Origin: a virus
Direction: 5' to 3' (one strand)
DNA: 64,000 bases
Virus record (IMG/VR): IMGVR_UViG_3300025646_000028
Coordinates: 1-64,000 of that record
Below, piece by piece: positions 15,467 to 64,000 of the stretch. The notes beneath the pieces were generated by a model, which had not been told where the DNA came from, made no database searches, and worked only from the letters and a program-made list of their open reading frames with translations. Numbering within the stretch: position 1 is the stretch's first letter; each line of letters opens with the position of its first letter. Position numbers and translations under genes: made by a program.

Positions 15467-15527
15467 CAACTATAATGCCCGTCTTATAGTTGGTGTATCC
15501 GAGGTATGGCTACCTGACGGGCTTTTA
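15467..15527 (+). terminator. Pseudoknot-type terminator at convergent junction
   Basis: Stem 1 is CAACTATAA (15467-15475) with TTATAGTTG (15484-15492). Its eight-base loop contains GCCCGTC (15477-15483), which pairs perfectly with GACGGGC (15516-15522), giving an H-type pseudoknot. A third hairpin AGGTA-TGGC-TACCT (15502-15515) sits in the long connecting loop. A TTTTAT run follows on the + strand and overlaps the stop codon of the converging 7903-aa gene. The GCCCGTC/GACGGGC pairing plus U-run would end + strand transcripts; the full pseudoknot may block polymerase or 3' exonucleases. Confidence 0.65.
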
Positions 15528-18500
15528 TCCTATTACGTTTCTTGACTGTCTCCAACGAACATATTGTCTCCATTGAATATCTTTAACTAATGAATAAGGA
15601 TTTATTTTTGGTTTACGCATACGTCCATACTTATTAAACCAATCACGATAAATATTTTCGTACTTCGCGTATCTACCATTTCTACCGTATCTATATTGCC
15701 GTGGAGTATACTTACCATAATTGTTTATATCATAAGCAAAACCACGGAATGTTGTACCGATAGAAGCTGGACGTGTTTCTAATAACTCTCTAGCTACAGG
15801 AACTTGTGCTGCTTGTTGACGTAAGTTAGTTTGTAACGCCATGTCACTTACACCTGTAACGGTATTAGCTAAACGTCCAACTAATCCTAATGAAGCTAAC
15901 TGATTTAATGCTTCAAATACACTTCGTTTTTCTACTAATGTTTTAACACCACGAAGTATAGGAGACATGCGACCTTCAAATGCTTCTTGTGTATTGTATA
16001 GAATATTCATTACATCAAGTGCACCGTTACCTAAACGTATACCAAAAGTAGGACTTAAAGGAATCCAACCATTACGCATTTGATATTTAATATAATCATT
16101 ATATTCTTTTTCTTCTTCATCAATATATTGACCGTACCAACCGTCAAGGAAGTCAGACATAAATCTCCACCAACGAGGACTGTTTAAACGATGTATCCAG
16201 TTAGTTATTGAACGCACAGGAAAAGAGATAAATGGAATGTCAGCCATTAAACGTTGTTCTAATGGAGATCTTAGACCGTAATTAAACCAGCTTCGTAAAG
16301 ATGCTAATACAGATTCATCAAATGATTTATTGTAAATCATTAAGTTGTATAAAAAGTTTGTAACACGCGCACCGTTTTCAATAAAGGTATTAATACGGTC
16401 ATAACCATCAATTAATGATGCTGTTAAACCTCTGAACGGTCCGCCAAAACCTTTAGCTAACTTACGGTCTTTACGCGCATCTGCAATCATCTTTTTAATT
16501 TCTTCATATGATTTTGAAGACAAATCATTTTCGTCATAACCTTTATAGTTTGCAAATACTTCTGGTAACAATTCAAAATTATCTTTACGCAAGTAGTCAG
16601 ACGTAGCAGCAGTATTCATGAAAGCACTTAATTGTTTTAGTAATGTTTTCTTCCATTTGTTTTTATCATCAAAAATAGCTTTGCCTAATTTAGTAAGTCC
16701 TTTACGAACTTTACCATTTTCATCTCTTGCATCTACGCGTAAACCTGCAACCCACTTGCCGTTAATTTCTTGGTTGTCGTATAGTTCAATGAATTCACCG
16801 AAACGAATGTTACTAACAAACTTAGCTGCGTCATAAAGCACATTTGTATATTTATCAATATTCTTTATTGTTATTAAATTCATTTGTTTTAATAAACGTT
16901 TTACTATAGGTAAATAATATTTAATACGCGGGCTTTCATTTTCTTTAGTTGCCCCAATAGCAACATAACTTTCTAAAACTTCTTTCATTAAACCTAAACG
17001 AGATTCAATTAACTTTGGATTACGTACTTTACTTTTTAGTTCTTTAATAATATCTTCGTAGTGCAAACCAATATTAATAATACTTGCGGTGTGTTCGTCA
17101 CTATACTTTTCATAGTAACTCATAAGTTCTAAAGAAGTCATCGTCATATGGATAAAGTCATTTGACTCTACTGTTTTAGGAAGTATTTGTGCATTGCTAA
17201 ACAACTGATACACTGTATCATTTAAGTTTCTAAATAAGAATGCCGCACTAAACTTAGAAATATTCTTAGATAACAACTGTAATTTATAAGCAAAGAGTTC
17301 GATACCTGCAGGTTTTCTACGGCTAGTGTAAGTAGTTTCCATTGCTTGTATCCATGTATTAAGATCAACAAACCCTACAATAGGTACAGCACCAGTGCCA
17401 TCATCTTTAACTGCGTTATAAAGAGTTCTTAATTCATCTATGCTATTAATCTTAATCTCTTTATAAGTCGGAGTTAAAGCTCTGTTGTCTTTTAATACAA
17501 CAGTCGGATCAATTTGATCATAGACTTTACCGTTGTATACAACCTTGCCACCTTCTTTTTGGTATGCTTCTAATTCTTCTAACGTTTTAAACTTTAACGC
17601 TTTGATTTCTTTTTCAGTAAACTGTGTATACAATTGATCTTTACTGTCTTTTTTAGGATCAAAACGTCTAATGTTGTCTACAATAGATTTATAAGCGCCT
17701 TCATCTTTATAAGGATCTTTAACAATTACTAAACGATAATCTTGTTGACGTGTGCGTAAAAACTCATACACAATTTTTAAACTTACGTCCAGGTTATTAG
17801 GGTTAATCATGTTTGTTAATAACGTAACATCATTAGCCATAGCTAATCTAGCTCTAACTTTAGAACTATCAAGATCTTCTTGTGTTAAATAACGTGGTTT
17901 ACCTACATTGCTGTCGCCTAAACCGTAGCCATCTACTGTACGCAACAGTAAAATTCCGCCACCTAAATTATTAATCAACGCATTTTCTAATGCTTTAGAT
18001 CTTAACTCTTGTTTAGCTTCTTCAATTTGTCTATTTTCTTCTTCTAGTTTAGCGATAGGATCTTCATTATTTTCGTACCATTCTTTAATACGTTCTGTAT
18101 TTAATAACGATTTTTCTTCAGCACTAAGTTTGACTTCTTCAGCTTTGACTGCTTTTTCTAAATCTTTTATTTCTAATTCAATAGCACGTTTACGATTTTG
18201 AAGTGCGTTAAGTTCACCTATACCATTCTTAATTTTATTTTGTAGACGTGCATTTTTTACACGTGGGTTTTGTAGCTTTAATTGCGCACTAGATTTAAGA
18301 TTTAAATCTGCTTGTAGTTTCTTTATTTCTTTAATTCTAGCTATGACTTCTTCTTTTTGAATCAATAATAATTCAATATCTGTTTTTAAATTACCAATAA
18401 ACTCATTGACTTTTGTTGTCTCTGAATCGAATGTTGCGTATTGCAACTTGCTTGTTAAAGCGTTTGTAACTTTATTGTAGGTATCTTTACTTAACTCTTC

Positions 18501-21500
18501 TTGTGTTTTTGAAATAACTTCGTTGTTATTAGTACCAGCTGCACTTACAGCAATTTGTACTTCTTCCATAGATAAACCTTCATCACGAATTTCTTGTGAA
18601 GCATCATCTTCTGGAGAAATAAACACACGGTTACCTTCTTCATCTACAATAAACCAACCTTCATCCATAGCATTAACGTTATTAAAGAAGTTAAAAAATA
18701 AATTGTTAGACTTGTAACGTTTATCAAAAGCTTGTTTAAAGTCAGGATTACGTAGAGCGTAAAACAGTCGTAAAATATTACTCGCATTTTTTACGCTATC
18801 AATACTATTAAAGTTAATATTCTTTGCACCACTGTAACGTTCATTAACTACTTGCACAATAGAAAGACTGCTACGCATAAAACCTATTAGTTTATAGAAA
18901 GGTATGTTAAAGCCATTAAAGAAATTAATACTTTCTTCTAAGTCTTTTTTATTAATAGCATAGTCATTTGGGTTACTTAATGCTTTATTTAATTGACTGA
19001 GACGTTTGTAAAACAGAGTAGTTATTTCATCTGGCATGTATAAGTTTCCAAACACGTACAACTTCAAACGTTCTTTAATTAAGTTCTTAATCGCTGTTTT
19101 TGCACTTGCTTCATCATCATAACTTTCTTGCAAACGTATACGTGATCCAGGGTTTTCTTCATAGTATTCTTTATTTAAACTGGCAGATGTAATACGTTCT
19201 TCTTTTATATCAAGTCTTTCAGTAAAGTCTCGATCAGCGTTAATAGCTCTACCAAGTATAGCTTCTGTAGTGTCACTACCTAAAATAATATTACGCACAC
19301 TTTTACGGGTTGTAATGTTATCTACTTTTCTAGTAAATCGAATATATCTTTCGTTAGAATTTGAATCAATACCATCATGCTTAGCCATGCTAATTGTTTC
19401 TTGTATTAAATTAGACATGTTGTTATTTGCTACACGTTCAATAAAGTATTGATCTAAATAACCTTTTGTTAATTTCTGTAAATCAACCCTTCTTAAAAAT
19501 TCTTCAGCGGCTTTACTACCTCGGAAATAATAAAACAATAATTCCTTTTTAAAGCTAGCACCTAATTCTTCTCCAAGTGATTTGCTATTTCTAAAATTCT
19601 CTATGTAGTTTTTAATAACAGGTTCATTTTTTATTGAAGAGTTTTCTACAAATTCTAAATAGTCTTTAACGGTTATAGTTTCTCTATCCATAAAATTAGA
19701 TAAATTTTCTAATTCAGATTCAGCATCCATCATTGTTTTAACAAGTCTTCTTAAGTCTTTTAAAACATGTTCTGTATCACGTAAAAAATATTTAATATCA
19801 ATTGCAGATTGTTCAGTCCAAATACGTTTAACTTCTTCAACAGTTAGCCCGTTTAAAATATTATAAAGTTCTTCGTAGTTTACATTTTCTGCTTTTGCTT
19901 CGTCTGCTAGTGTCGCTAACAAACTACGTACAGTTACTTCACCTTCAGTATTAGTAGCTCCTATAGCTTTCCAGAATATACCTTGTTTAGATTTATTAAT
20001 GTGTTTGTATTCTGCAATAATTGAAGATGTAAATTGATCTTTACGTTTATTACCTGCGTAATTAACACCGTTTTTAGATGCGCGAATACGGCCTGTTGTA
20101 GATTGTTCTAGTTTTTTAGACAACACTAACAACACTAAACGTTTATAGTATTTACGATAAGCTTGTTTATCTTCTTCAGTAACTCTATTAGTATTATTAA
20201 GAATGTCTTGTTCTTCTTGAGTAAAGTTATTAAGATATTCTTTCTTTAATTTTTCTGAAATAATAATGTCTTCACCGTATTCAAAGCTGTTAAAGTTCTT
20301 TTCAATTGTATAAATTGTATCAATCTCATCTTTAAAAGTGTCGTAATAATCTTTAAGTTTATCAACATTAAAGTAGTCTGATACTTTTTGAATGCTTGTA
20401 TCTTCAACACTAGATACATCATTACCTTCATTGTTTATACGTACATGTGCGTTGACATATAACCTTAATGTATCAACATCATTAGTGTCTAATGGTTCTA
20501 AATTATTTTCTACACTTTTTGCTAGTTGGTTATATGTGTCTCCACTGATTAATCGGTACATTTCTACATTTAAATATTCACCTTCTTCTCCACGAATATC
20601 TTTATTTAAAGTATTTTTACCACGTTGATTACGTCCTACACTATAGCTAATTAATTTTGCGCCACTCATAAAGTGTTGATCGTTTTCTACTTTATCTTTA
20701 GCAAAAAGTTCTCGATTAGCTTTTTCTAAGTACGATATTAAATTACCTTTTTTATCAATTTCTTCATCAATAGAGTAGTAGTTTAAATCGGTAGCTAATA
20801 GTTCTCGTAAAGGAGCATTATCTCCTTCAACATCAGAAAATTTTAATAAACCCATACCCATAGTATCACCGTCGTTATCAGCACCCATCATGTTGTATGC
20901 GTATACGTTAACGTTAACTGCATATGACGTGCTAAAACCTATAGCTTTTAACACAGGGGTAGCTGCGTAATCTTGAACAGGTGAACGGACTGCTAAAACG
21001 TACGTGTATGTTTGGTTAAGTTGGTACCCATCTAATTTATTAGTACCACTTTCTACTGCTAAATGTAACGCACCGTTTTCTTCAGCTAAAATACCACGCG
21101 AGTTTAAAAACTCTATACGTTGTTCTATGTTTTCAAAACCTAAAATAGTGTCAATATATTCTTTAGATTTTTTAGCATTTAAAGGTTCAGTTTTAATTAA
21201 AGTATTACCTTCTTTGCTATCTTTAACTACAATAGCGTCCCAAGCATCTTTAGGTAAAGTTATTTCTCCAGCATCAAGTGTAACGTCCACAAGATATTGA
21301 GCACGCACACCGTCTATACGTTTAAATCTTGATTGGTAGTAAGCACTATTCTTACCACTATACATTTTCTTTAATGCATTGCTTTCAGTATTTTTTACAA
21401 TACGATCAATGTTTTTATTGTAACCTTCCTTAGGACCACTTGTAGTGTTTCTCAAGTACAAGTAGTTTAAATATTGCATACCTTGTTCTCTTACATATTC

Positions 21501-24500
21501 ATGTATTTCTTTCTTTTGGTATGCTTCAGTTAATTTAATTTGTAATTCTTCTAAACGTTCTACTGTGTTTACTTCTTCTTCGTCTTCTAATCCTGTTGCG
21601 TTTTTAATTACAGTCTTAAAACCTAAAGAACGTATATTAGATAACAGATTTAAGTTATCATTGTTAGGACCAAAAACTTTATTAAAGTTATCTAACCCAA
21701 TTTTATTTATTATAGGTATAGAAACAGTAGGCGAAACATAAGTACCTTTAATTGGATTGTTATTACTGTCAACAACGTTACGAATAAGTTTACCTGCTGT
21801 GTTAAATTTAGTTTGTGTAGCCATAGCTTGCGCACTATTTTCATGATCAGCGTAAACGTATGCCAAACCACGAACATATGTAGTTGCAGTTAAATCAGTT
21901 TTAATTAGTCTACGTTCATGTACTTTATTCATGTCGTAGTCTTCTGTAATAAATTGATCTGATTTTGTTTTAATATACGCAGGCGTAATAATTGCCGGGA
22001 CATCTTTTTCTGCGTCTTCTTCTTTAAAGTCACGTAAAATTAAAACGTTATACAATTCAGTATCTTTTGTAGTGTCAGTAATCAAAGATTTAAATTCTTC
22101 ATCATTACTTAATTTATCTTTTATTTCTTTTGAAAGACCTTCTAACAATTCATAAGAATCAAAGCTACTATCCACAAGTAAAACATTGTCTTCTTTATTT
22201 AATAAAGGTCCAAATGTTTTTCTTAAGTAAGGATCTATTGCTTTAAAAAAGCGTAAGGTTCTTGCGGGGATTAATGAGCTTCCATCTTTTTTAGTTTCAT
22301 TAAGTAAATAAGCACGTATATAATTAAATAACATTTCACCGTAAATACCAGCTGTACCACGGCTATTAACTGAGTTAGCACTTGCTACAAATAATGCGCC
22401 ATATGTTTTATATAACCCTTGAATAGGTCTGACAGCTCCTTTAAACCCGGAGTGTAATCCTAACCATGTCTTATTACCATTACCATATTCAGTTGAATAG
22501 TAGAAATCTGCATCAACAGCAATTTCATCTAATGGTATACGTGGATCGTTTGCAAAAGCAATAGGTACAGTAAACCCAAATTGATGTACTTCTGTATCAT
22601 CTTTATAACTCTTATATAAAGATTTACTCATTACATTAGGCATAAAGATTTGTGTATTAGCACTCTTAGTTAATCGCACAAAGTTATTTATTACTTCTTT
22701 GTTTTTAATATACTTACCAGGATTACTTAAAAACGTCGTTAATAATTTTTTACCCGGAGCAACTTTATCAGGAATGTCTCCGTAAATATTATTTAAAAAT
22801 TTAAGGCTAGTATACTTAGCTAAAAGATGCTTAGCACTTAACATAGTACGGATTGCGTTTGTACTTAATAAGAACGGGAAGTTTAAAGCATAACGTGTTT
22901 TATATTTAAGTACTGCACCTGCACTACCTTCAGAGTTTAATTGAAGATCAATATTGTTTTCTTTTAAAAATGCATCATCAAAAGACTCAATGTTATAATC
23001 ATATGTATAATCTGCATTTATTTGATTAACAATAGAGCCCGGTTCAAGTGCTTTATAACGCGACGTTAAACGGTTATATATACCTATATAAATAGTTTTT
23101 AAATCACGTTCTGTTAGTTGTCTTTGCTTTTGATACAATGCAACTTCTGCAAAGAACTGATTACGAATCATTTCAGATATGTTTAGTACACGTAAGTATT
23201 TTGAGTTAGCTGCAAATTTTTCATGAGTTAAAGTTTTTTGATAGATTGCTTCGTTTGCTTCTTCTGCTTCGGTTATTTTTGAAGCTTCTGTTTTAGAATT
23301 AACACGTCTAAAGTTATCTTTATTTTTAATTAAAAATTTAATAAGTACATCAGAAGCGGCTTTACCACTATCAACACCTTTAGCATAGAACACTTCATCT
23401 CTTCTAACATTGGGTAAAATGCTGTATTTAGCCTTGCCATCTTTAGTCCAGTAAAATTTCTTTTCATCTAAAAGATTTTCTAATTCTTTAAATGTAAAGT
23501 CAGAGTCAAATTTAGCATCTTCAGAATTAAAATAAACATTTATATTTTTTTCTAATGTTTGAAAGCCTGCAGTAGAACCACCGTCATATTTTAAATGAGC
23601 AGGAATATATCCGTAGCGTAATTTAATTTCAATTCTATTTTTCTTTGCGTTAAAACTTGCAGTACTAACAAGATTATATTCGTCATCTGAGACACTATAT
23701 AAATAAGTGTTATCAATTGCATTGTCTTGTCGTATAGCTTTAGAAAGTACAGTATTGTGTACAGTTCGTATAGCTAAAATATCATTACCTTTTTCTGGAT
23801 CATCATAATGTACTTTAAGTCCTAAGCGTTTTAACGTGGCGCTTTCAAAAACTTCTTTAAGATCTAGTGTACTACTAGCTATGCTGTCAAACTGTTGATC
23901 ATTCATACGGTTTGAAGGTTTTTCTCCTGTAATTAAACTGTAAATAGTTTCATTACTTAGATTCTCTATTTTAGTTTCTAGTCCAGTAATACTTTCCATT
24001 ACGTTAGAGTACGTTAAAAGTAAAACATTGAGATCAGTTTTACCTGGTAAGTCTGACTCAACATAATTTTCCAACCAAGCTTTGGCTTGTAGTAAACCGT
24101 TTTTGCGATCATTAAGGTACTCATTAAACACAACAAGTTTTGTGCTTGTTGTTTCTTTAATAAGATCTTCAAAACTAATTTGACTTAGCGAAAGATTTTC
24201 TTCATAGTTTTCTAATAAGTTAAGTACTTTAGTAAATGCTGCTGTGTACTTTTGATAGTCTTCTTGGTTTTCAGAATCTGTAATTACACCATACATTTTA
24301 CGTAAGGATATTAAATCGATAGGTTTGTTTTCAAATAAGATATTGTTGTTTGCGATACTAATCCCTTTAAAGGTTTTAATCTTTAATAAGTTTGTAAGAG
24401 CTTCAACTAACTTAGTGTATGTTTGTTTTAAGTAGACTTTTAATTCATCTTGATAATCCTTCAGTATGTTTTTTAAGAATGTTTCAACAACAGCGTCTTC

Positions 24501-27500
24501 TAATTTGCCATCTTCTCTAAGTACTGTTTGCTTAGAAAGAGCTTTAAGTTCTTCATTGATAGCTTTTAAAGCGTCTTCTTTAGTTATAGATTTATTAAGC
24601 ACGTCTAATATACGTGTGTCTACACTTCCTTCTAAAAATACTTTATAGTCTGTAATTTCTTTACCACTACGTATAGCCGCAGCTAAACGAATAATATTGC
24701 TGAGTTTTAATTTTAAATCTCTATCAGCCATTTCTTTTTGAGTTTCTAATAAACCCAACTCTTTAGTAGCTGTAGTACTAGATCTTATTTCTTTAACAGA
24801 ATTTAATGCAATACTTACAGTTTGACCATAACCAGATGTAGTTAATTTATCTATTTTTTGTGCAGAAGAAATAATTTGTTTTACAATTTCATCATCACTT
24901 ATAACTTTTGCTGCAACTTCTTCTCGAAGTCTACTAATAGTTTCTTTGTGTTTTCTTATTGTTTCTTTTTTCTTTTCAATTTCTTTTTGCTTTTGTAGTA
25001 CAATTTCTTCAGAAGTTAATCCTGTTTTTAAAACTTCAGCTAGTGTACTATTAGCAGCTTGTAAAGCATCAAGTATTTCAATACTTTCTTTTATATTTAA
25101 CTCAACATCTTTGTCGTAGAGTTTAACACCGGCAAGCTTTATAGCACGTTCTTTAAGTTCGCTGCGTACACCTACACCTGATGTAGCTCCGTATTTAATT
25201 ACAGCCCCATTTAAAGTTTCATTGTAGTTTTTCTCTACACCTTTTATTAATTTATCTACATATTCAATAATAATTTTTTCAACAGCAGGTGTCTTATTTT
25301 CTAAAGTAATACCTTCCATAAACCGTAAAACTAAATCATTTTTAATTTCAGTTTTAATAGCGTCTGTTACTTTTTTATCAAAGTATTTGGTTAATTGATC
25401 TCTAAGATATTTAATTGCGCCTGTGCTAACATCAAAAATTTGGTTTTTAATATCATCGTTAAGAATATAACCTGTTTGTTCAGAAGCTTTTTTAATAGCT
25501 TGATTTATTTTAAGCGCAGTAATTTTGTTATTAATACGATCTAAATCTTCTTTAATTCTATCTAGTTCTTGCTTAGTAATAAATTCTTTTTTAGTTTCAA
25601 TTGTTTTAATAAGACGATCACTTGCTTCTTGAAGTTCTTTAATATACTCTGTAGTTATTTCATCCGCGTCTAGCTCAGTCTTATCTATTTTATTAAAAAT
25701 AGTTTCAAGACTATTTTCTTCAGATAAATTACGATAGTATTCGTTAACAATTAAATTATCACCGATACGACTAATAAAGTTTTTAATAATATTAAAATCA
25801 AAACGGAAACCGTTGTGTGCAACAATGTCTACATTTGCATCTCCAACTTTTTGTATAAAAGTATTAATAAAGTTGTCGTTATTTTTAACTTGTTTTACAC
25901 GCGCAATTAACTCGTCCATTTTTATTTTAGCTTTAACTTCAAATTCTTCAGGAGATAAGTCTTCTTTTTCCCATTGCTTTTTCCATATGCGTTTTTGTTG
26001 CTCATAAAACTTAAGCATGTTTTCTTTATAACTTCCGTCATCATTAACTCCGTCATAAAATAAACCACTATTAATGTATACATCATTAATAATTAACTGT
26101 TTATCTTTTACAGTAATCATTGTTATTTGATAAGGGGTGTCCTCACCGTTGTAACGGTACGTTTCTAAGTCAATAACAATAAAGTTTTTTGACGCAGGTT
26201 TTTGATGTATATAATTTAATAATGTAATTAAAGAGTCAACAACAGAGTTGTGTAATGCGTAGTCTCCCCTACTCTTTATAAATGTTTTTAAAAATTCAAT
26301 GTCTTGACCAGGAAATTTTTCTTGTACAATTTTTAAAACAATATTAATAACATCTATTTCAGCTGCATCTTTTTTAATTCTAGCTTTATAGTAATGTTTA
26401 AATAAGTCTAAGTTACTTAATTTATCTCCAGCCACTTCTAGTTCTTTATTATACGCAGCTTGACGATCAGCTTTTGTTTTTTCTAAAGCTTCTTTTTTAA
26501 TTTCTAAATCAGCTTTTAAAGTTTCAATGCCTTCTCTTCGTTTAGGTAAATCGTTTAAAGCTTGTTTAAAATCATTAACATTTTTAAGTTTATCTAAAAA
26601 TTGTTTTTTATAACGTTTATAGTTTTTTATTTCAAAGTTGTCTTTACTGTTTGTAACAAATCGGATTAATGAAGCCACTGTTTGATCATCCATATTATCA
26701 ATAGCTTCACCTTCAATGTCTTTGTAAAGGTTGCTAAATAGTTTTTTAGCGTGATCAAGATCAGAAACAGTAGGAACTTTCCCTTTACGATCTAATAAAG
26801 TTTTTTCTAAACCAATACTTCCTATAGTTTTTTCTGCTTTATTAATATACTCTACAAATTTGTTTGAAAAATATTCTACACTTATATTAAATTTATTAAC
26901 TAAAGCGTTGTTAACGTTTGCTAATAATGCTTGTGCAAAACGTAGTTTATCATCTGCTAAATCACTAAAATCAAGTTCAACTTGTTTACTACCAAAAGAT
27001 TTACTAATTGCGTCATAGTTATTAGGGTGTTTAATAAAATTAAAAATTAAATTAAATGCTGTAAGAGGTGTGATATCTTTAAACTGTTCTCTTGTTTCAT
27101 TCTCTATTCTTGCAGCTTCAGCATCTGTAAGCTCTCGTTTTAAGTCACTACTACGTTTATTAATTTTTAATTCGTTGAAAACAGTAAAGTATAAATTTAG
27201 TTTAAATTCTTCTTCACCTTCTAATTTAGGAAGATCAACAGCTTCAGGTATATCAACGATTCTGCGGTTTGCTAAAGTATTAGCGTGGTTTCTAAGTATA
27301 CTTATTTCATTTTGAACAGCTTTTGTTAATACATCTAAACTAATAAGTTTATCGTTTTTAACTACACCTAAATCTTTTTTACCGGCTATACCGAATTGAA
27401 CATTAAAGTCACGGATAAAACCGTATAAAACTTTTAAATATGAAAGTTGTTTGTTGTAAAGCGCTTTATGGCGTTTTGTAATTAACGCTTTTTCTGTATC

Positions 27501-39707: not shown

Positions 39708-41504
39708 CTACTTAACGTTAGAACCGGAGTCGTTGCCTTCACCGTCATCGCCGAGAACATCACGTTCAAGGGTGTCGATGTAGCGTTCGACATGGGTACG
39801 ATTCCACGCACCTGCACTGTGTGCAACTTTGAAGATAAAGACTTCTTTGTTATAGATAACAATATCGCCTTTAGCATAAGCAACACTTGCAGAGAACTTC
39901 GGATAGTCTTCAAAACCTGCGACATTAGGCGAACCAGCAACACCACCTAAGTTAACACCATCGACACGAAGGGCTTGCGCACCACTCGCTTCAATGTGGT
40001 TTTCGAAGGAGTCATTTTCAGGATCAGCTAAGAAGCTTGGTTCATACGGTGCAAACACAACTTTTTCAGTGAGAGCAGCGAGTTCCGCGTAACGTGGGAT
40101 ACCAAACGTAACGACAACAGCTTCAGGACGTTTAATTGCTAAACCGAAGCCGTCAACTTTAAACCCGATGGATTGACGTTGATCAATAGGATCAGCAACA
40201 CCCGAAGAGCCTAAGGCTTTAATAATGATACGTGGAGCATCAGAAACACCTTCCGTAGAAAGTTTGACTAACGCTTCAGCACCGAAGAGAATACCACGGT
40301 GAACTGGTAATTGCATAAATGCACCAGCAGCTAATAAAGCATTGACCGTAGCGATGTCACCAGTGACACCAGCAGCAAGCGCACCATATTCAACTTGTTT
40401 AGAAGTAGCATTGATTGAACGGGTTTGTTTACGTAACAACGCTTTGGTTGATGTAGGAGCAGCAGTACCTTGAACATTCGTATCCCAGGTTAAGGTTAAC
40501 GAAGTAGGAACTTCCCATTGAATTAATTCTTCGATAGCAGAACCATCTTTAAGATAGCTTGTACCAGCGACATTAACTTTAGCTTTAGTCGTGCTTGGTC
40601 CAACTTGCATTTCTTGATGCACATCTAAGTAGAAAATAGTTGCAGCATCAGCACTTAATGCATATAAACGAATAACTTCGTTACCGTCTGCTAATTCATA
40701 GACACCAGGGAATTCGATATCAGGATACGCGAATTCATCTAACATCGTTGGGATAAAGGATAATTCGAACATGTCGAATTGTTGTCCAGTGGTCCAGAGT
40801 TTACCAGTGGTTTGTTCGATTTCCATGTATTGTTTAACACGTGGATCATCGATAAGTCCGTTAATAAATTCAGGTGAGCACACGTAATTAAACTTGCCGG
40901 CAACAGGTTTAACCATCATGCGTTTCATACGAGAAACTAAGAAACGGAGGTCGTCTAAACGGATTTCATCACCGAACACTAAGTCTTGGAAACCAGATTT
41001 AAAGTTTGCAAAGAATTCGTTAGGTGTGGATAACCAGGTCTTACGAGCATAAAGTTCTTTGGTTTGGTTAGCAACTTCACCATATTGAACTGAACGTTCG
41101 GCTAAGACTTCGTTAACAATGCTTAAGTCCAATTTGTCAGTATATTCTGACCAACGTCCAAACGAGAACACGTTACCAACTTCAATAGTTTCGTAAGCAT
41201 GCTTGTCAGGAGAAGGTGGAATACCTTCCTTTAATGGAGTCAACGTTGGGGTTAAGCCAGCCCAACGACGGAAACGAGCAGTCGTTTCTCCGCGGCGAAT
41301 CGTTAAAGTTTCTGCCGCAGCTAAGTGAACATAATTTTCTTCACCATATTTTAATGAGTCGAGAAGAATCGTGTTATAAAAAACGTCGGGATCAAACCCA
41401 GCGCGATACACACCATTTTCATCGTACAACATTCCGATCACGGTATTAACGTTTTTTAGATCGTGTAACGGTAATAATTTACCGCCAGCATTTGTTTGTG
41501 CCAT
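39708..41504 (-). CDS. Major capsid protein, N4 gp56 type
   Basis: Residues 65-145 show the N4 gp56-family pattern: TIRRGETTARFRRWAGL, TPLKEGIPP, and SRWSEY/TDKLDLS-like strands (here FGRWSEYTDKLDLS), then an AERSVQYGEVANQTKELYA helix. This is the HK97-fold E-loop and spine region. At 598 aa it is longer than N4 gp56 (about 400). The extra C-terminal part includes a small domain with AYAKGDIVIYNKEVFIF and HSAGAWN, resembling carbohydrate-binding modules of the 5/12 type, which may decorate the capsid surface. It is expressed from its own promoter with AAGGAGG before the ATG. Confidence 0.85.
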   Translation of the reverse strand: MAQTNAGGKLLPLHDLKNVNTVIGMLYDENGVYRAGFDPDVFYNTILLDSLKYGEENYVHLAAAETLTIRRGETTARFRRWAGLTPTLTPLKEGIPPSPDKHAYETIEVGNVFSFGRWSEYTDKLDLSIVNEVLAERSVQYGEVANQTKELYARKTWLSTPNEFFANFKSGFQDLVFGDEIRLDDLRFLVSRMKRMMVKPVAGKFNYVCSPEFINGLIDDPRVKQYMEIEQTTGKLWTTGQQFDMFELSFIPTMLDEFAYPDIEFPGVYELADGNEVIRLYALSADAATIFYLDVHQEMQVGPSTTKAKVNVAGTSYLKDGSAIEELIQWEVPTSLTLTWDTNVQGTAAPTSTKALLRKQTRSINATSKQVEYGALAAGVTGDIATVNALLAAGAFMQLPVHRGILFGAEALVKLSTEGVSDAPRIIIKALGSSGVADPIDQRQSIGFKVDGFGLAIKRPEAVVVTFGIPRYAELAALTEKVVFAPYEPSFLADPENDSFENHIEASGAQALRVDGVNLGGVAGSPNVAGFEDYPKFSASVAYAKGDIVIYNKEVFIFKVAHSAGAWNRTHVERYIDTLERDVLGDDGEGNDSGSNVK

Positions 41505-51930: not shown

Positions 51931-52334
51931 ACGACTTCTCCTTTGTTTTCAAGTTCTAATAACTTAAGTTCATACTCATTAATAAGATCACGTATACGTT
52001 TTTCAAGTGAAAAAATGTATTCTTCAATATCTGGACGAATTGGTTTTGTACCAGTTATCTGATATTTATTATACGCTAAATTAGATTGATAAACATGAAT
52101 AGGTGTATTATTGTCATCAAATAATTCCACTTTAATATTTACAGTAGGTGTATTAATGTCAGGCATTTCAATAAAAGTACTTTGTTCCTTAAACTGTTTA
52201 CCATTAATAGTAAGTGTAGGATGTAAGTGCGAAGTGTTAGTTTCAAATTCATACTCTAAATAAGTATGATTAATTAATTCAGACACTTTCATCTGAACTA
52301 TTTCAACTTTACCGTTAGTTAATTTTAACTTCAT
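51927..52334 (-). CDS. Unknown structural-type protein (135 aa)
   Basis: A beta-rich N-terminal domain (MKLKLTNGKVEIVQMKVSE start) and a C-terminal coiled coil (residues 105-133). The position after the 1333-aa tail gene, with four-base overlaps on both sides, indicates a tail or assembly component. Not recognised. Confidence 0.55.
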   Translation of the reverse strand: MKLKLTNGKVEIVQMKVSELINHTYLEYEFETNTSHLHPTLTINGKQFKEQSTFIEMPDINTPTVNIKVELFDDNNTPIHVYQSNLAYNKYQITGTKPIRPDIEEYIFSLEKRIRDLINEYELKLLELENKGEVV

Positions 52335-55300
52335 ACTCTACGCTCCTTATATATAATACCAAAATGTTGCAGTTTATATAAACCTTTTGAAATAAATTGT
52401 AATTTAAATCTAAATACTTTACCTAAACCTAAAATCGAAGTACGGTGTGTAAGTAACTTACTAGAATTAAATGAACTAAAATCCATTAATATATTATTAT
52501 TTTCAAATAAATTATTTGTTAATGAGTACTTAAGTACATCTGTTGCAGTTTCTGATATTTGATTTACATCGACTAACTCGATTAAAGAATTGTCTAATTT
52601 AGGAACACTAACAAAATAACTTACTCCATTAATGTCTTGTACTTCAAGTTGTTCATTATAAAATGGTTTAGCAATAATATCATCGATATGTGTTTCAAGA
52701 TTAAATAATAAATTACTCGAGTTAAGATTCTTAAACACGACATGTAGATCACGGAATCGTTTGTTTAAATGGTTATTAAGATTCAAGTTACCTGTATCAA
52801 TTAAACAATTAATACCTTCTTTTTTAAAGTTGTTTGTAAAAGTAATGTCGACATGGTTATCACGAACATTAGGTTCAACGTAATGCATAGTAAAATAAAT
52901 TTTATTATTTTGTTCAGTAATGTACAAGTCTCCACTTTCAACAAAAAATTTATCATAAATGTTTGTAAATGTCAGCGTATCATAAACCGTATAACGATTA
53001 TTAATAACGTCATAAATAACTATATAAGTCATGACACCTGGTACATAGTAAAACATTTTAATAAAGTTAATTGACACTAAGGCCTTAATCTTAACTTGAT
53101 CTTTAGTGACACGAGTATCTTTAGCATACATAGCTAAACGTTCATTCATATATACGTCATAGTTTTGTAACACATCATTAACAGCTTTATTAAAAAATTG
53201 AATAGTAAAACGTGTTTGATCATCAATATTTGTACTTGGGCGGATCATGTATAATTGTCCATCTGCTGAGTAAAATAAAACCATCTGATTAAATACTTGA
53301 ATAACATCGGCGTATTCTTTGCTAACTAAAAGATTATAAAGAACAATTTGTTTTAACCAAGCTACACCAGTCACGTTTTGTTCTAGTTGATTTGTGGCCG
53401 GATTAATTGTAGTAACAGTTGTCTCAACTCGGTAAACTGCGTAAAGATGTTGAGTAGTAAATACAAGTATAATTGTTTTATACTGTAGTACTTTAACAAT
53501 ATCTTCACCAAACTCAATTTTGTTTTTAGCTTTAAACCAATAGTAACGTCCTTCTTCAGAAATGTACAAAACATTTTTGTTCCACACTAAAAGTCTACTG
53601 TCTTCAAAAACTAATTGGTTTAAAGAACTTAATATTTGTTCAGGTTCTTTTGTAATTGTTTTTTCAATATAAGTTACGTCATCATCATTATACCCATATT
53701 GAATGTTAAAAGATTGTACTAATGCTGTGTTGTTCCAAGCAAGCTTAATTGTTTCATCATTTGAAAAATAACTATTTGTAAGTTCACTTGTTTGATACGG
53801 CCTCATATAAAATATACCAGATAATCCTTTATCAAAAAAACCATTTTCAACTAAGTCTGGCTTAACGCTTCCAACAAAAGTCATACGTCCTTCTATACCT
53901 GTTGGGTTATCCCAGCGATATATTTTATTATCACGGGTGTCTTTATATAAAGCACCTTGTGACTTTATAGTTGGATATGCTCCACCATAAATTGGGGTCC
54001 ACGAACTTCCGCTAGGTGAAACTGTTTGTCTATAATATCCACCATTGCTTGATTGCACAACGGTATTATAAGTTGCTGTAAAAGAAGGTGCAACACCGTT
54101 AGCAGTCACAACATACCAAGGAGGTTGATCACTATAATCATTAAAATTACTTCCGCTTGTAAAACTAATTGGACTAGTTGTTGTATAATTTTTAAGTTCA
54201 GTTAAATCTGTTTGAATATCATACTTAAGCGTGTCCCAATTAAATTTAACAAATGGAAAATCATTTCTATAAAATAAATTGTAAGCATTATGATACATTG
54301 TGTACACATTAGGTGCTCCACTATTTAATCCATCTTCATTCCAATAATTTAAAGCAGCAAATGCCCAACGATACGTTATTTTTTGTGTACTAGCTGTAGT
54401 TACTTCTGTTAAAGGACCTTCATCATTGTTTACATTTTCCCATATGTATTTTTTATTTGTACGAGAGTCTATATAATAAACTCCTTGTATTCTATCTCCT
54501 ACAGAACCATAAGCACTTCCTTGTGCATACCACTGTGGAGTACCAAGCCCAACAATAGTAAGTTTATAAACTTGACCTGTACTTCTTACTTGTACTATTT
54601 GACCAAAAGAATATCCCGATGTACTTACTGGTGTTGAATTAACATAATAAGGTTGTTGATCGCCAAACTCAATAGGACTTGCAAAAGTTACACTGGCAGT
54701 AGTTTCTACATGAGTATTATTAGAACCGAATGGAAGTAATTTAAATACAATATCATTATTGTTATTAAACATTCCATCACTATTAATACGATCAATTAAT
54801 TCTGTACCTGTTAAAAAAAGATTGTATTCATCATTAATAGAACCTTTTTCTATAACAAACGATTCCGTTAAAGACTTTGCAGTGCTCTGCATACTTTCAT
54901 CAAAAATAGAATATTGATCACCGCCAGGAATTGTATTTAAATTGTAAACATAAAAAAAGGCTGAACTTGAAAGCGTGTCAATAACATCTATTAAACTTTT
55001 TTTATCTTTAATTTTTTCAAGTTCAGCTAACCAAGTATCTTGTATATTTTTAATTGTACTAAAAAATAAAAAATAAGGAGCAGTAGCATAGTTAACAAAG
55101 TTACCTAATGAATCTTTACCAAAAAAAGTTTCAGTAAAATCTTGAGTTGAGCTATTAAAACTTTTAGAACTTACGGATGGGTATAAAGTTTTAGGAAAAA
55201 TAAATATAACATGCCTTGCACCTTTATAATGATTTTCAGATCGATCAGCACTATCTAAACTTATTGAATTATCAAAGTTTGCTTTAGGAAAAATTTCTAC

Positions 55301-56332
55301 AGGTGCATTACCATTTCCATAAGTAAACCAAGGTGTAGTAAAACTAGCGTCTTTGGTTTGATCTCCTACTGTTGTTGATGTATTAAATAACTCCAAACGA
55401 TAAGCCCATTTGTCACTAGTGTTTACATCATTATTTAAATCATAGTATGCAGGGTTTAATGAAAAGTAAGGTTTAATATTATAATTAATATTACGGTACA
55501 TAAAGTTATTAATGTAATTATTACTACTATCATAAATATAAACAAAGTTTCCTAAGTTACTATTATGTCCAGTTGGTTTTGATGCATAAAGTATTTGCAT
55601 TGGGTCTGGAATAATAGATTTACTGACAGACAAATTACGTTCACTAGAAACTAATGTCGGATGTTTAAAGTTATCAACACATTCAAATATTAATACATTT
55701 CCATTAGCATATTCAACGCCGTTAATAGTTACAGCATCGCTGCGATAGTACATTTGAATAGTTAATGTAATTGTTGGATTATCAGGAATCGCTAGGTAAG
55801 CTTTAACTAATGTTTTTCGTATACCATTTTCATCATAAATAAATTCAACTTTAGTTTCAGGAATAATAGTCAAATAACTTTGTATATAAGTTAAAGTATT
55901 ATCATAACCTGCACCTACATAATAAGTGTGCACAGCTGGTACAGTTTCATCTAAGTAAGTAAAAAAACTACTCCAATCAAATTCAGCTATAGTAGCCTCA
56001 ATAGGTAAGTATTGATTCGTTAAATTATATGCAGATAAATCAGCACGGTAACCTTTTTTCTGCGTAAAATCATAGATAATATACGCAGAATCGTCTGCAC
56101 TTTTAAAAATAATTGTTTTATTACTTAATGAAGTATCACCTGGATTTGTAAAAGCTGTCGTAATAAAACCATCACGTGGTTGTACAGATTGACCAGTATC
56201 AGATATATCAAAGTTTACGATATGTTTAAAGAATCCTTCTTGCAAAGGATCCGTTGTTGCAATCATTCCTAGATAACGTGTGTTATCGTAAAATGATTTT
56301 TCAGGATAACCCTGTACTGCTTTACGCGCCAT
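52331..56332 (-). CDS. Large tail protein, stabilisation/tail-tube-B type (1333 aa)
   Basis: Starts MARKAVQGYPEKSFYDNTR, then LGMIATTDPLQEGFFKHIVNFD and VQPRDGFIT. This opening resembles proteins annotated as stabilisation or tail-tubular proteins (T7 gp12-like nozzle) in podophages and crAss-like phages. The remainder is a long beta-rich protein with no enzyme motif, containing two ExPYYVNSTP/QPPWYVV-type inserted domains (about residues 570-640 and 760-830). It follows the adaptor gene with an 11-base overlap, as connector and nozzle genes usually do. Confidence 0.7.
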   Translation of the reverse strand: MARKAVQGYPEKSFYDNTRYLGMIATTDPLQEGFFKHIVNFDISDTGQSVQPRDGFITTAFTNPGDTSLSNKTIIFKSADDSAYIIYDFTQKKGYRADLSAYNLTNQYLPIEATIAEFDWSSFFTYLDETVPAVHTYYVGAGYDNTLTYIQSYLTIIPETKVEFIYDENGIRKTLVKAYLAIPDNPTITLTIQMYYRSDAVTINGVEYANGNVLIFECVDNFKHPTLVSSERNLSVSKSIIPDPMQILYASKPTGHNSNLGNFVYIYDSSNNYINNFMYRNINYNIKPYFSLNPAYYDLNNDVNTSDKWAYRLELFNTSTTVGDQTKDASFTTPWFTYGNGNAPVEIFPKANFDNSISLDSADRSENHYKGARHVIFIFPKTLYPSVSSKSFNSSTQDFTETFFGKDSLGNFVNYATAPYFLFFSTIKNIQDTWLAELEKIKDKKSLIDVIDTLSSSAFFYVYNLNTIPGGDQYSIFDESMQSTAKSLTESFVIEKGSINDEYNLFLTGTELIDRINSDGMFNNNNDIVFKLLPFGSNNTHVETTASVTFASPIEFGDQQPYYVNSTPVSTSGYSFGQIVQVRSTGQVYKLTIVGLGTPQWYAQGSAYGSVGDRIQGVYYIDSRTNKKYIWENVNNDEGPLTEVTTASTQKITYRWAFAALNYWNEDGLNSGAPNVYTMYHNAYNLFYRNDFPFVKFNWDTLKYDIQTDLTELKNYTTTSPISFTSGSNFNDYSDQPPWYVVTANGVAPSFTATYNTVVQSSNGGYYRQTVSPSGSSWTPIYGGAYPTIKSQGALYKDTRDNKIYRWDNPTGIEGRMTFVGSVKPDLVENGFFDKGLSGIFYMRPYQTSELTNSYFSNDETIKLAWNNTALVQSFNIQYGYNDDDVTYIEKTITKEPEQILSSLNQLVFEDSRLLVWNKNVLYISEEGRYYWFKAKNKIEFGEDIVKVLQYKTIILVFTTQHLYAVYRVETTVTTINPATNQLEQNVTGVAWLKQIVLYNLLVSKEYADVIQVFNQMVLFYSADGQLYMIRPSTNIDDQTRFTIQFFNKAVNDVLQNYDVYMNERLAMYAKDTRVTKDQVKIKALVSINFIKMFYYVPGVMTYIVIYDVINNRYTVYDTLTFTNIYDKFFVESGDLYITEQNNKIYFTMHYVEPNVRDNHVDITFTNNFKKEGINCLIDTGNLNLNNHLNKRFRDLHVVFKNLNSSNLLFNLETHIDDIIAKPFYNEQLEVQDINGVSYFVSVPKLDNSLIELVDVNQISETATDVLKYSLTNNLFENNNILMDFSSFNSSKLLTHRTSILGLGKVFRFKLQFISKGLYKLQHFGIIYKERRV

Positions 56333-57678: not shown

Positions 57679-58530
57679 TTATTTCTTAGCAGCTTGTGCT
57701 AGTAAATCTTGTAAGGACGGCCCAGTAGTATTTGTAGTTTTAGGCTGAGAAGGTTTAGCAGGATTTGCGGCAGGCACTTTAGCTTGTCGTGTGCTTTCTT
57801 CTTGAAATTTAACTTTTGCTTGTTCAACTGCGTTATCAATTTCACGTTTAAGTAATTGATCACGGTAGACTAAGATATAAAGATCTTGAAGATCGCCACC
57901 TTGTGCTAACCATTGATATGGATTTTTCTTTTGTGACATTGCGTCTTTAAAGAAGTTATTGATTTCTCCACCTTTAAGATTCATGTTTAGTTGCAAGTTA
58001 GTTAATGCACGATCCATAGAAACTTGTAAGCGTTGTTTGTTAAGTTCAATTTTTTCTTTTTCAATGCGATCAATTTCAGCTTGGACTTCAGGAGTAATCC
58101 CACGTGATTCAGCTTTAACTTTTGTATCAGCTTCATCCATTGCTTTAGTCAACGCATCATAGTCGACTTTGCCATCAACATTAAAGTCTTTAATCTTAAA
58201 GCCGTAGTCACCGTTAGTAAAACGAGTAATAGCTCCTTCGATTTTTTCCCGCATTTGTTTTTCCGTGGTGTACTTTTCACGGACTTCTTTCATCGGGTTA
58301 GGTTTCTTTTCACTTTCTTCTGCAGGTTTTGCAGGTTTTGTTTCAACAGTTTTTCCAGTACTTCCTTCACTTTCAACAGGCGCTTCTTCAGCTTCTTCAG
58401 GTTCAGTTCCTTCTACAGGAGCCGCAACCACTTCTTCTTCAGGAGCTTCTGGAGCTTCTTGAGGTTCTGGTGCAGGACCACCAGCTGCTTGAGTTAAGGC
58501 TTCTTCTAAACTAATTTTTTTGTCTGCCAT
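57679..58530 (-). CDS. Scaffolding-like protein (283 aa)
   Basis: Residues 1-80 are highly acidic and rich in Pro, Glu and Ala (disordered). Residues 85-230 are charged helices with coiled-coil character and a KQMREKIEGAITRF element. The C-terminal tail is Ala/Pro/Thr-rich with a short basic/helical tip (LQDLLAQAAKK). This composition fits phage scaffolding proteins. It is far from the capsid gene (16 kb), which is unusual. Confidence 0.65.
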   Translation of the reverse strand: MADKKISLEEALTQAAGGPAPEPQEAPEAPEEEVVAAPVEGTEPEEAEEAPVESEGSTGKTVETKPAKPAEESEKKPNPMKEVREKYTTEKQMREKIEGAITRFTNGDYGFKIKDFNVDGKVDYDALTKAMDEADTKVKAESRGITPEVQAEIDRIEKEKIELNKQRLQVSMDRALTNLQLNMNLKGGEINNFFKDAMSQKKNPYQWLAQGGDLQDLYILVYRDQLLKREIDNAVEQAKVKFQEESTRQAKVPAANPAKPSQPKTTNTTGPSLQDLLAQAAKK

Positions 58531-61688: not shown

Positions 61689-61703
61689 CATTTTGTGTAA
61701 AGT

Positions 61704-63443
61704 TTACTTAAAGCCTTGACCCATTGAAGGATTTTGTTCCATTGCGTTCTTTTCTTCGATAAGAATGGTAATGGCTTGTTGTGCGGCTTGTTCTTCAGAT
61801 AATCCTTGAGACAGCAATCGACTAAAGATAGACGCAAAGTTTGTAAGATCTGCCACCAAAGTTTCAGCAATATTATCTTGGCTTTCTTTTTCAAGACGTT
61901 GTAAGAACAAATCTTTTTGTGGAAAGTCAGAGAATCGTACAAGATCTTGTGGTGTAATAATTTGTGGGTTGATTTGATACTGTGCTTGCATTTCATACAG
62001 TGCTTTAGCAGAATCAAACAAGTTAGCTTGGTTCATTGGTAGCAGTGTGGATGCAGCAATGTGATAATCAAAACGTAAACCTTGTTCACGCATTTCATTA
62101 AAACGTAATTCGTTTTGATCAACAACACGATTAGTACCTGTCGCAGAAAGTTTAGGCACTGTATATGTACGGTCACCTCCGTACGCAAAATAATAATCAA
62201 TAACTAACTTTGTAAGATCTTCACAAAATTCTTCTAACAACGTAATACGCGAGTTATCTGTAAGCATTGTGACACGCGCTTGGAATGCCTGCGTCGCACC
62301 GGTTGTTTGAATACTGTTTGTCATACGTCCTTTATAGTAAGGGTCAACACCGGTTACTTGAAAGATAGAATTTTCTAAACGTTGTTTAATTGGACTTAAG
62401 TCAGGAATCACAGGCACGTCTACATAGTTGACAATGTTACGCGGATCACCCTTTGTTTCAAAAGATGCACCAGGCGTGTTACCGTAGTCTGCAAACGAGC
62501 GCATATTAATACGGCCATCTGTGTTAACAAATCGTACGCGATTAAGTACGCGATAAGGTTGAGTTGCTTCCATTGAGTCAAGCATGTTAAGTGCAATGAC
62601 GGTGTTAAGAATCTTTGTTAACTTAGAATTACCGTACGGATTACCATCAGGACGTTGTGGCGTGTAGCACACAATAGGGAAACGTTTCAAAGGAAGATCT
62701 AAGTTTTCATAAATGATTTGATCTTCGTTAATAATAAAGACTTGGTCGATGTTGCCTTCTTCGTTACGAATAAAACATTCAATAAGCGATACAGTTTTGT
62801 TACCTGTCGTTGTATTGTTTTCATAACCAGCAAGACGGTTGTTTTGCGTCTTGTCACTCAGTACATTACGATGTGCTTTTTCATAAGCTGTTACAGCGTC
62901 TTTAAACTTTTCGTACTTCTTAAGCGAATCAATATTAACTGCACGTTCAATAAAAATAGCTTCACCATCTTTATACGAATCAACACTTGGATCAAAGTAA
63001 AGTTCTTCTGGTGATAATGCTTTAAGTTTGATGTGTCCTTTTTGAGCATCCCAGTCAACACGCATAGCACCTAAGTTATAAAGCTCTGCGTTTTCACCAA
63101 CATGTAAAAATTTATTCTTCATACCCCAGTGATTCCAATGGTATGCGATAAAAGCATTTAAAGCTTCTACTTGTTTTTCATCTTTTGCAAAACGAGGAGT
63201 GACAGTACCAATAAACGCACCGCTATAAATAGAGTTTAAATATCCTTGCACCACGTATTCAAAGTAGTTCCAGTCAGGAGTAATCGTATATTCTTTTAGA
63301 TTCTTTTTAAAGTAAGCCCAAAACTCGCCTTTATAAAGCGAGCGAATAATACGCCACTCCCGCAATGTACCTTGCTTGAATGCACGATACTCATCAAACA
63401 TTGTTTTTAAAGTAAACAAATCATACTTAAATTTTTCTGCCAT
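61704..63443 (-). CDS. Portal protein (579 aa)
   Basis: A podovirus-type portal. It begins MAEKFKYDLFTLKTMFDEYR, has a helical wing with WNYFEYVVQGYLNSIYSG, a GAMRVDWDAQKGHIKL beta segment, YFDPSV, PIVCYTPQRPDGNPYGNSK, and a long C-terminal helical part with TGATQAFQARVTMLTDN. These elements match the N4-like/podophage portal layout. The length is typical. It forms the dodecameric ring at the capsid vertex. Its ATG shares a base with the stop of the upstream gene. Confidence 0.85.
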   Translation of the reverse strand: MAEKFKYDLFTLKTMFDEYRAFKQGTLREWRIIRSLYKGEFWAYFKKNLKEYTITPDWNYFEYVVQGYLNSIYSGAFIGTVTPRFAKDEKQVEALNAFIAYHWNHWGMKNKFLHVGENAELYNLGAMRVDWDAQKGHIKLKALSPEELYFDPSVDSYKDGEAIFIERAVNIDSLKKYEKFKDAVTAYEKAHRNVLSDKTQNNRLAGYENNTTTGNKTVSLIECFIRNEEGNIDQVFIINEDQIIYENLDLPLKRFPIVCYTPQRPDGNPYGNSKLTKILNTVIALNMLDSMEATQPYRVLNRVRFVNTDGRINMRSFADYGNTPGASFETKGDPRNIVNYVDVPVIPDLSPIKQRLENSIFQVTGVDPYYKGRMTNSIQTTGATQAFQARVTMLTDNSRITLLEEFCEDLTKLVIDYYFAYGGDRTYTVPKLSATGTNRVVDQNELRFNEMREQGLRFDYHIAASTLLPMNQANLFDSAKALYEMQAQYQINPQIITPQDLVRFSDFPQKDLFLQRLEKESQDNIAETLVADLTNFASIFSRLLSQGLSEEQAAQQAITILIEEKNAMEQNPSMGQGFK

Positions 63444-63871: not shown

Positions 63872-63918
63872 GATTGTTATTCTCCTTAAGCGGGTCAAAA
63901 TATGTCCCTGTATTTTTT

Positions 63919-63947
63919 ATTATAGCACTCTTTTGTTTATCGTGTAT
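63919..63947 (-). promoter_or_regulatory. Extended -10 promoter of the portal unit
   Basis: On the - strand, ATACAC (63942-63947), 17 bases, TGC-TATAAT (-10 at 63919-63924), in the same form as the promoter at 61650. Leader about 40 bases. The remaining bases to 64000 hold no gene that I can support. Confidence 0.6.
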
Positions 63948-64000
63948 GAAACTTTTTCCACTAGGTAAGTATACATTAAGTTTTAATTCTTGTAAATTAT

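What the first reader, a model, noticed from the sequence alone, without database searches (positions are those of the whole stretch)
15525..64000. N4-like late gene order with the virion polymerase slot filled by an unrelated polymerase
As in phage N4, late genes run on one strand toward a convergent junction, the capsid protein is N4 gp56-type, the early strand has an AAA+/VWA pair, PolA, primase and SSB, and the last late gene is a giant polymerase. In N4 this is gp50, a 3500-residue T7-like enzyme. Here no T7-type motif was seen and the slot has a two-barrel enzyme. This would be a non-orthologous replacement of a packaged transcription machine.
Basis: partly seen in the sequence, partly recalled or inferred. 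Interest (0 to 1): 0.82.

Follow-up and report, generated by a model that had tools for sequence, protein, structure and literature searches.

The report
Giant injected phage RNA polymerase carrier
A third of this uncultured phage's genome encodes one 906-kDa protein that very probably carries a cell-type (two-barrel) RNA polymerase into the host with the viral DNA; the phage is not a relative of N4 with its polymerase swapped, but belongs to a little-known group whose equivalent protein seems to carry different cargoes in different phages.

Summary
The observation largely holds. The 7,903-aa ORF (15525-39236, -) is the last late gene at a convergent junction, and seven other contigs carry an intact homologue of 7.6-8.4 kaa. 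No T7-type polymerase was found. Three lines together identify a two-barrel RNAP at aa ~5400-6660. (1) K-W-G...G-K-G and R-P-QD...G-D-DGD are invariant in a fast-evolving chain. (2) The homologous giant of a more distant relative, G008, passes Pfam's Rpb1 domain-2 cut-off exactly at this motif. (3) A Foldseek search with a low-confidence model ranks bacterial RNAP beta chains as its top five hits. The N4 interpretation fails. TerL, portal, scaffold, capsid, primase and PolA match Paenibacillus phage API480, not N4 or crAss phages, and the late-gene order is shared by all three groups. Nor was the slot emptied and refilled: the giant's C-terminus belongs to a carrier protein found in 48-54-kb relatives, where it is 2.8-4.8 kaa and has no RNAP; one such carrier instead holds sigma-70 region 2, NADAR and DUF4326 domains. 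Best reading: a virion-packaged, injected carrier with a two-barrel RNAP built in, working like crAss, P23-45 and N4 virion RNAPs but in an unrelated lineage. Packaging, activity and host are inferred, not shown.

The parts
15525..39236 (-). Giant carrier protein, 7,903 aa (906 kDa), last late gene; 32.6% of the record
   Evidence: single ORF; homologues of 7,596-8,437 aa in seven contigs; mass and share of record
37557..39236 (-). Conserved N-terminal region (aa 1-560), glycine-rich with hydrophobic windows at aa 264 and 317; candidate membrane/channel or packaging part
   Evidence: invariant columns in 7 giants; homologous to G008 giant N-terminus (profile E 2e-26; pairwise 1e-8); hydropathy
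25707..26249 (-). DEDD (DnaQ-like) 3'-5' exonuclease-like domain, aa 4330-4510: D-x-E-T (within VIDLET, aa 4354-4359) and AHNGxxFDF (aa 4473-4481)
   Evidence: alignment A1; only sub-threshold Pfam hits to 3'-5' exonuclease families; not detected in G008
19257..23039 (-). Two-barrel RNA polymerase module, aa 5400-6660
   Evidence: conserved island; Foldseek RNAP beta and DPBB hits; PF00623 over cut-off in the homologous giant of G008
22437..22472 (-). First-barrel (beta-type) lysine motif KTWLGLHSGFKG, K5589 and K5599
   Evidence: K, W, G, G, K, G invariant in all giants aligned; coordinates checked
20970..20987 (-). RSPVQD motif (aa 6084-6089) upstream of the catalytic aspartates; cf. R-x-P in crAss RNAP, P23-45 gp96 and G008
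   Evidence: R, P, Q, D invariant in the seven giants; RSPTQ in G008
20865..20879 (-). Catalytic aspartate triad D6120-N-D6122-G-D6124 (second, beta'-type barrel)
   Evidence: DxDGD invariant in seven giants and in G008 (NLDFDGDG)
15528..16469 (-). Conserved C-terminal region, aa 7590-7903; the carrier hallmark shared with RNAP-less relatives
   Evidence: 41-79% identity among giants; homologous to C-termini of G008, G009, G012 proteins
39302..39640 (-). 112-aa conserved protein between capsid gene and giant; homologue of API480 gp9
39708..41504 (-). Major capsid protein, diverged N4-gp56-superfamily, with an inserted region and a C-terminal CBM_5_12-like stretch
   Evidence: phrog_1357 48 bits, TIGR04387 42.6 bits, API480 MCP 9e-32, alignment A9
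43660..47619 (-). Tail fibre protein
   Evidence: phrog_2631 etc., PTR repeats
52331..56332 (-). Large tail protein (1,333 aa), weak homologue of API480 gp11
57679..58530 (-). Scaffold-like protein, homologue of API480 gp7 (between portal and capsid in API480)
61704..63443 (-). Portal protein
   Evidence: SU10_portal 46 bits; API480 portal 1e-44
4803..7550 (+). AAA+ ATPase and VWA-like (DISGST) gene pair
   Evidence: AAA_5 47 bits; VWA motif by eye, no Pfam hit
7580..14166 (+). Replication block: primase, SSB, SNF2 helicase, PolA, exonuclease, Sak4-type ATPase

Best explanation
The giant gene encodes a virion cargo ('carrier') protein that is packaged late and ejected into the host with the DNA. 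Its conserved N- and C-terminal regions mediate packaging and/or membrane passage (inferred). The middle holds a single-chain two-barrel RNA polymerase (two DPBB domains; lysines K5589/K5599 and aspartates D6120/D6122/D6124 at the active site) and a DEDD exonuclease-like domain. After partial unfolding through the short tail, the chain refolds in the cytoplasm and transcribes the phage's earliest genes before or instead of the host RNAP (inferred by analogy with N4, crAss and P23-45 virion RNAPs). The phage belongs to an API480-related, podovirus-type lineage, neither Schitoviridae nor Crassvirales; in RNAP-less relatives the same slot holds shorter versions of the carrier.
For: Shown here: intact 7.6-8.4-kaa homologues in seven contigs with conserved islands N-term / exonuclease / RNAP / C-term separated by poorly conserved sequence. 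K-W-G..G-K-G and R-P-QD...G-x-DxDGD are invariant. The giant of relative G008 (homologous N- and C-termini, pairwise 1e-8 and 2e-25) passes the PF00623 RNA_pol_Rpb1_2 cut-off (33.4 vs 25.3 bits) at its NLDFDGDG motif, and our beta' profile hits the same spot. The motif register matches crAss001 RNAP and P23-45 gp96. Position is as in N4, phi14:2 and API480. Relatives' last late gene shares the C-terminus. From papers: API480 gp16, the product in the same slot, was well covered in MS of (unpurified) phage particles (PMC6937236); crAss001 RNAP-associated proteins are virion cargo (PMC10172136); P23-45 gp96 is a virion RNAP in a 5,002-aa chain (PMC10770324); N4 gp50 is an ejected ~3,500-aa RNAP (PMC12633501).
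Against: No direct evidence of packaging, ejection or activity. Both AF2 models are weak (pLDDT 55 and 57) and no Foldseek hit reaches E<=0.001. The window's own giant gives no Pfam, PHROG or PDB sequence hit; its family membership by profile passes through G008. API480 gp16 has no detectable sequence homology to the giant. No repeated promoter-like k-mer was found in intergenic DNA.
Confidence: 0.77

Rival explanations
1. N4-like phage in which a two-barrel enzyme replaced the T7-like gp50.
For: Same slot and similar gene set: AAA/VWA pair, PolA, exonuclease, Sak4; weak N4-gp56 capsid hit; Sak4 profile hits N4 (3e-5).
Against: TerL, portal and capsid show no N4 similarity in hmmsearch or hhalign but strong API480 similarity; PolA tree puts the clade with API480-like phages, N4/LUZ7 on long branches; the slot product is homologous to RNAP-less proteins of API480-like relatives.
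Confidence: 0.05
2. [quoted passage not shown]
For: Same gene plan and same polymerase class; R-x-P...D.D.D register matches crAss001; SNF2 helicase and Sak4 also occur in phi14:2.
Against: No significant hit of TerL, portal, MCP or tail profiles to crAss001 or phi14:2.
Confidence: 0.04
3. A two-barrel RNAP fused to a giant late protein but not used at entry: it is expressed and acts late, or is a different nucleotidyltransferase activity.
For: No virion proteomics; G008 has a second, separate two-barrel RNAP on its early strand, so roles could be split differently.
Against: Last-late-gene position, carrier C-terminus conserved in RNAP-less relatives, and the studied giant virion-fused RNAPs act at entry (PMC10770324, PMC12633501, PMC10172136).
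Confidence: 0.11
4. Catalytically dead or decaying polymerase remnant kept as a structural filler.
For: RNAP module evolves fast (23-56% identity).
Against: The catalytic residues of both barrels are invariant in seven giants; the module is more conserved than its flanks.
Confidence: 0.03

Closest known systems
Thermus phage P23-45 gp96 (tail-tape-fused two-barrel virion RNAP, PMC10770324)
   Same: Single-chain two-barrel RNAP embedded in a giant virion-type protein; VDFDGDT motif in register; relative G008 adds a separate second RNAP, as P23-45 has gp64
   Different: gp96 is the N-terminal part of a siphovirus tape measure with a metallopeptidase; here no HExxH, and the RNAP lies two-thirds along a longer chain of a phage with a podovirus-type gene set
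crAss-like phage virion RNAP (phi14:2 gp66, crAss001 gp50)
   Same: Two-barrel RNAP, late strand ending in large cargo genes near a convergent junction, R-x-P...DxDxD register; cargo is virion-packaged (PMC10172136)
   Different: crAss cargo is split over several proteins (gp45, 46, 47, 49, 50); here one 906-kDa chain; capsid, portal, TerL not related to crAss at this sensitivity
N4 / Schitoviridae virion RNAP gp50
   Same: Slot (last late gene), giant size, presumed injection
   Different: T7-type fold (PF00940 rings in N4, not here); TerL, portal and capsid unrelated at this sensitivity
Paenibacillus phages API480 / SV21
   Same: TerL, portal, scaffold, capsid, gp9-like, primase and PolA homologous; same late order
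   Different: 45 kb; last large structural gene gp16 is 1,631 aa with no detectable RNAP or homology to the giant
Polyvalent proteins of phages and conjugative elements (Iyer et al. 2017, PMC5512222)
   Same: Very long multidomain proteins delivered at entry, with polymerase and effector modules
   Different: Their RNAP modules are N4-type and almost always fused to a metallopeptidase; here two-barrel, with no HExxH in any carrier

Membership tests
Two-barrel (DPBB) RNA polymerases | DxDxD aspartate triad in the beta'-type barrel | tested here: met
   D6120/D6122/D6124 invariant in seven giants plus G008
Two-barrel (DPBB) RNA polymerases | Sequence-profile match to Rpb1/beta' domain | tested here: inconclusive
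   Window giant: no Pfam hit. Homologous giant in G008: PF00623 33.4 bits, over cut-off 25.3
Two-barrel (DPBB) RNA polymerases | Beta-type barrel with two active-site lysines | tested here: met
   K5589 and K5599 invariant; RNAP beta chains are top five fold hits, E 0.016-0.05, from a low-confidence model
Two-barrel (DPBB) RNA polymerases | DNA-templated RNA synthesis | not testable with these tools
   Needs purified protein
[quoted passage not shown]
   Metagenomic contig; inferred from position and from MS of API480 gp16 in the same slot (PMC6937236)
Schitoviridae (N4-like) | T7-like virion RNAP gp50 | tested here: not met
   PF00940 not found in the record; rings in N4 control
Schitoviridae (N4-like) | N4-type TerL, portal and capsid | tested here: not met
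   No hmmsearch/hhalign similarity to N4 or LUZ7 proteins; MCP 42.6 bits, below cut-off
Crassvirales | crAss-type TerL, portal and capsid | tested here: not met
   No hit to crAss001 or phi14:2
API480-related phage group (no family name known to me) | Homologous TerL, portal, scaffold, MCP, primase, PolA and late order | tested here: met
Polyvalent proteins with RNAP (PMC5512222) | Metallopeptidase (HExxH) fused to the RNAP module | tested here: not met
   No HExxH in any giant or carrier

The most novel reading that the evidence does not exclude
The last-late-gene product of this phage group is a general injection carrier with exchangeable transcription cargo: a complete two-barrel RNAP (with an exonuclease in the window's clade) in the 70-86-kb phages, a sigma-70 region 2 with NADAR and DUF4326 domains in the 54-kb relative G019, and no recognised cargo in others. 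RNAP-carrying members would be the largest single-chain RNA polymerases I know of (about 0.9 MDa).
Probability: 0.5. Interest if true: 0.82.

Novelty: new variant of a known kind. Interest (0 to 1): 0.66.

Why it matters
Virion-delivered two-barrel RNAPs are known in crAss-like phages, jumbo phages and the Thermus phage P23-45; this adds another, unrelated lineage, with the polymerase in an even longer chain. Because relatives with and without the RNAP share the carrier's C-terminus, the group offers a natural comparison of how an entry machine gains or loses its own transcription, and of what the carrier ends do. The possible sigma-factor cargo in G019 would be a different solution to the same problem (redirecting host RNAP from the first moment).

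Tried and rejected
Direct family and PDB sequence searches with the giant: nothing. RNAP profile in host genome contigs: none. First AF2 model of aa 5470-6660: low confidence, only DPBB-level and gp96 hits; the compact G006 core was little better in pLDDT but gave specific RNAP beta hits. RNAP profile in 15 TerL relatives found nothing, although G008 does have the motif; it was recovered only after fetching whole contigs. A degenerate DNA pattern for the motif was too strict. hhalign of the beta' region with crAss001 and gp96 aligned in the right register but with low probabilities (2.6% and 32%), so kinship to a particular two-barrel clade is not claimed. Promoter k-mers in intergenic DNA: none. 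Host: TerL relatives sit in MAGs labelled Paludibacteraceae, Bacteroidia and Clostridium, so the host is left open.
Full report
WHAT IS THERE. The window is bases 1-64000 of a 72,764-base IMG/VR record. One strand carries replication-type genes up to 15433; everything larger from 15525 to the end of the record lies on the other strand. The last gene of that late strand, 15525-39236, is one open frame of 7,903 codons (906 kDa, a third of the record). It is real: searches with the capsid and with part of the giant brought in six further contigs of 56-82 kb, later a seventh, each with an intact frame of 7,596-8,437 aa in the same place. The giants of G004 and G005 have the same length and aligned identically in the stretches printed, so seven distinct giants, the window's included, were aligned.

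ANATOMY. The chain evolves fast but has four conserved islands: N-terminus (aa 1-560, 33-68% identity to relatives), a DEDD exonuclease-like domain (4330-4510, D-x-E-T and AHNGxxFDF), the polymerase module (5400-6660) and the C-terminus (7590-7903, 41-79%). The stretches between are at 17-23% in the distant members. The exonuclease assignment is by motif; Pfam gives only sub-threshold 3'-5' exonuclease hits in several members.

WHY A TWO-BARREL POLYMERASE. First, motifs: K5589-x-W-x-G...G-x-K5599-G, then about 500 residues later R6084-x-P-x-Q-D and G-x-D6120-x-D-G-D6124; all are invariant in the seven giants. Cellular beta carries paired lysines and beta' carries NADFDGD in this order (established knowledge). 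Second, a bridge: the TerL-related contig G008 has a 4,949-aa protein as the last gene of its late block whose N- and C-termini are homologous to the window giant (pairwise 1e-8 and 2e-25). It contains HRSPTQ...NLDFDGDG, and passes Pfam RNA_pol_Rpb1_2 (24.6 bits in hmmscan, 33.4 with its neighbour, cut-off 25.3). The window's beta' profile hits the same residues (weak, E 0.009). Third, fold: AF2 models are poor (pLDDT 55 and 57), yet Foldseek against 350,542 PDB chains ranks RNAP beta chains 1-5 and isolated DPBB domains at probability up to 0.99 (E 0.016 and worse), and with the other model DPBB domains and P23-45 gp96 RNAP first. No single line is conclusive; together they are convincing. 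No T7-type RNAP is found, with N4 as positive control.

WHAT THE PHAGE IS. Profiles from the seven genomes were run against proteins of N4, LUZ7, crAss001, phi14:2, SU10, P22 and API480 (parts of crAss001 and SU10 were not included). API480 (Paenibacillus larvae) is hit by TerL 3e-73, portal 1e-44, MCP 9e-32, PolA 2e-82, primase 5e-27, the 112-aa protein 1e-7 and scaffold 2e-6. N4 is hit only by Sak4 (3e-5) and PolA (1e-3); crAss phages by nothing significant. hhalign agrees (its AAA row used a wrongly chosen LUZ7 ORF and is disregarded). PolA and TerL trees place the clade beside API480-like contigs, with N4/LUZ7 on very long branches in PolA. The capsid is of the broad N4-gp56 superfamily (API480 181 bits, relatives 72-76, window 42.6, cut-off 60). 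The late order TerL-portal-scaffold-capsid-...-giant is shared with API480, N4 and phi14:2, so it cannot be used to claim N4 descent.

THE SLOT. In API480-like contigs of 48-54 kb the corresponding large gene at the end of the late block is 2,765-4,780 aa. Pairwise phmmer links the window giant's C-terminus to G009 (1e-10), and G009/G012 to G016, G017 and G019. These have no DxDGD and no PF00623 or PF00940 match. G019's 4,780-aa version carries sigma-70 region 2, NADAR and DUF4326 domains above their cut-offs. API480 gp16 is in the corresponding place but is not detectably homologous; it was well covered by MS of phage particles (71 peptides, 60.75%; PMC6937236; the particles were unpurified). 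So the slot holds a conserved carrier, and the RNAP is a module in some members, gained in their ancestor or lost elsewhere. G008 also has a separate 1,146-aa two-barrel RNAP candidate on its early strand, like the virion/non-virion pair of P23-45 (PMC10770324).

MECHANISM. Shown: gene position, conserved ends, intact active-site residues. Inferred: packaging in the head, ejection partly unfolded through a short tail (model published for crAss001 cargo, PMC10172136, and N4, PMC12633501), refolding, and transcription of the first genes. The hydrophobic windows, confined almost entirely to the N-terminal 500 residues, fit a membrane or channel role. Incidentally, the crAss001 cargo set (gp45, 46, 47, 49, 50) sums to about 845 kDa by the masses in PMC10172136, close to this single 906-kDa chain; this is suggestive only.

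VERDICT. Observation largely right; interpretation right about the enzyme class, wrong about N4 descent and replacement. New variant of a known kind. Searches of open-access papers showed no description of this group's giant, but subscription literature and preprints were not covered.

Noticed in passing
L201:2753-17092 (contig G019, 27750-42092 minus): The 4,780-aa last late gene of an RNAP-less relative contains sigma-70 region 2, NADAR and DUF4326 domains, all above Pfam cut-offs: a possible injected sigma factor. N4 gp12 is also a DUF4326 protein.
   Followed up: partly
L202:7443-10880 (contig G008, 77440-80880 minus): Second two-barrel RNAP candidate (1,146 aa, GGDFDGDQV) on the early strand of G008, besides the one in its giant; no homologue in the window's group.
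   Followed up: partly
L020, giant of G002 (contig IMGVR_UViG_3300032293_001294), aa ~6381-6600: A large insertion in the RNAP module resembling a SLOG/DprA-like nucleotide-binding domain by eye; crAss RNAP-region proteins are annotated DprA-like and DUF1768.
   Followed up: no
window 39708-41504: Capsid protein has an inserted region (about aa 280-395) and a C-terminal stretch resembling carbohydrate-binding module CBM_5_12 (22.4 bits, cut-off 26.2), both absent from API480's capsid.
   Followed up: partly
window 56322-57581: 419-aa tail-type protein with BspA-type leucine-rich repeats (LRR_5, 37 bits).
   Followed up: no
contig G008, both ends: Start and end of the contig share 3,138 identical bases: it is circular or terminally redundant, unit length about 82 kb, so probably complete.
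   Followed up: yes
L002:11471-12763 (record end): The window's record ends inside a D5-like (SF3) helicase/primase gene that is full length in relatives, so the record is slightly incomplete.
   Followed up: partly
L211-L213: TerL relatives lie in MAGs labelled Paludibacteraceae, Bacteroidia and Clostridium: the wider phage group may span Bacteroidota and Bacillota hosts, or be misbinned.
   Followed up: no
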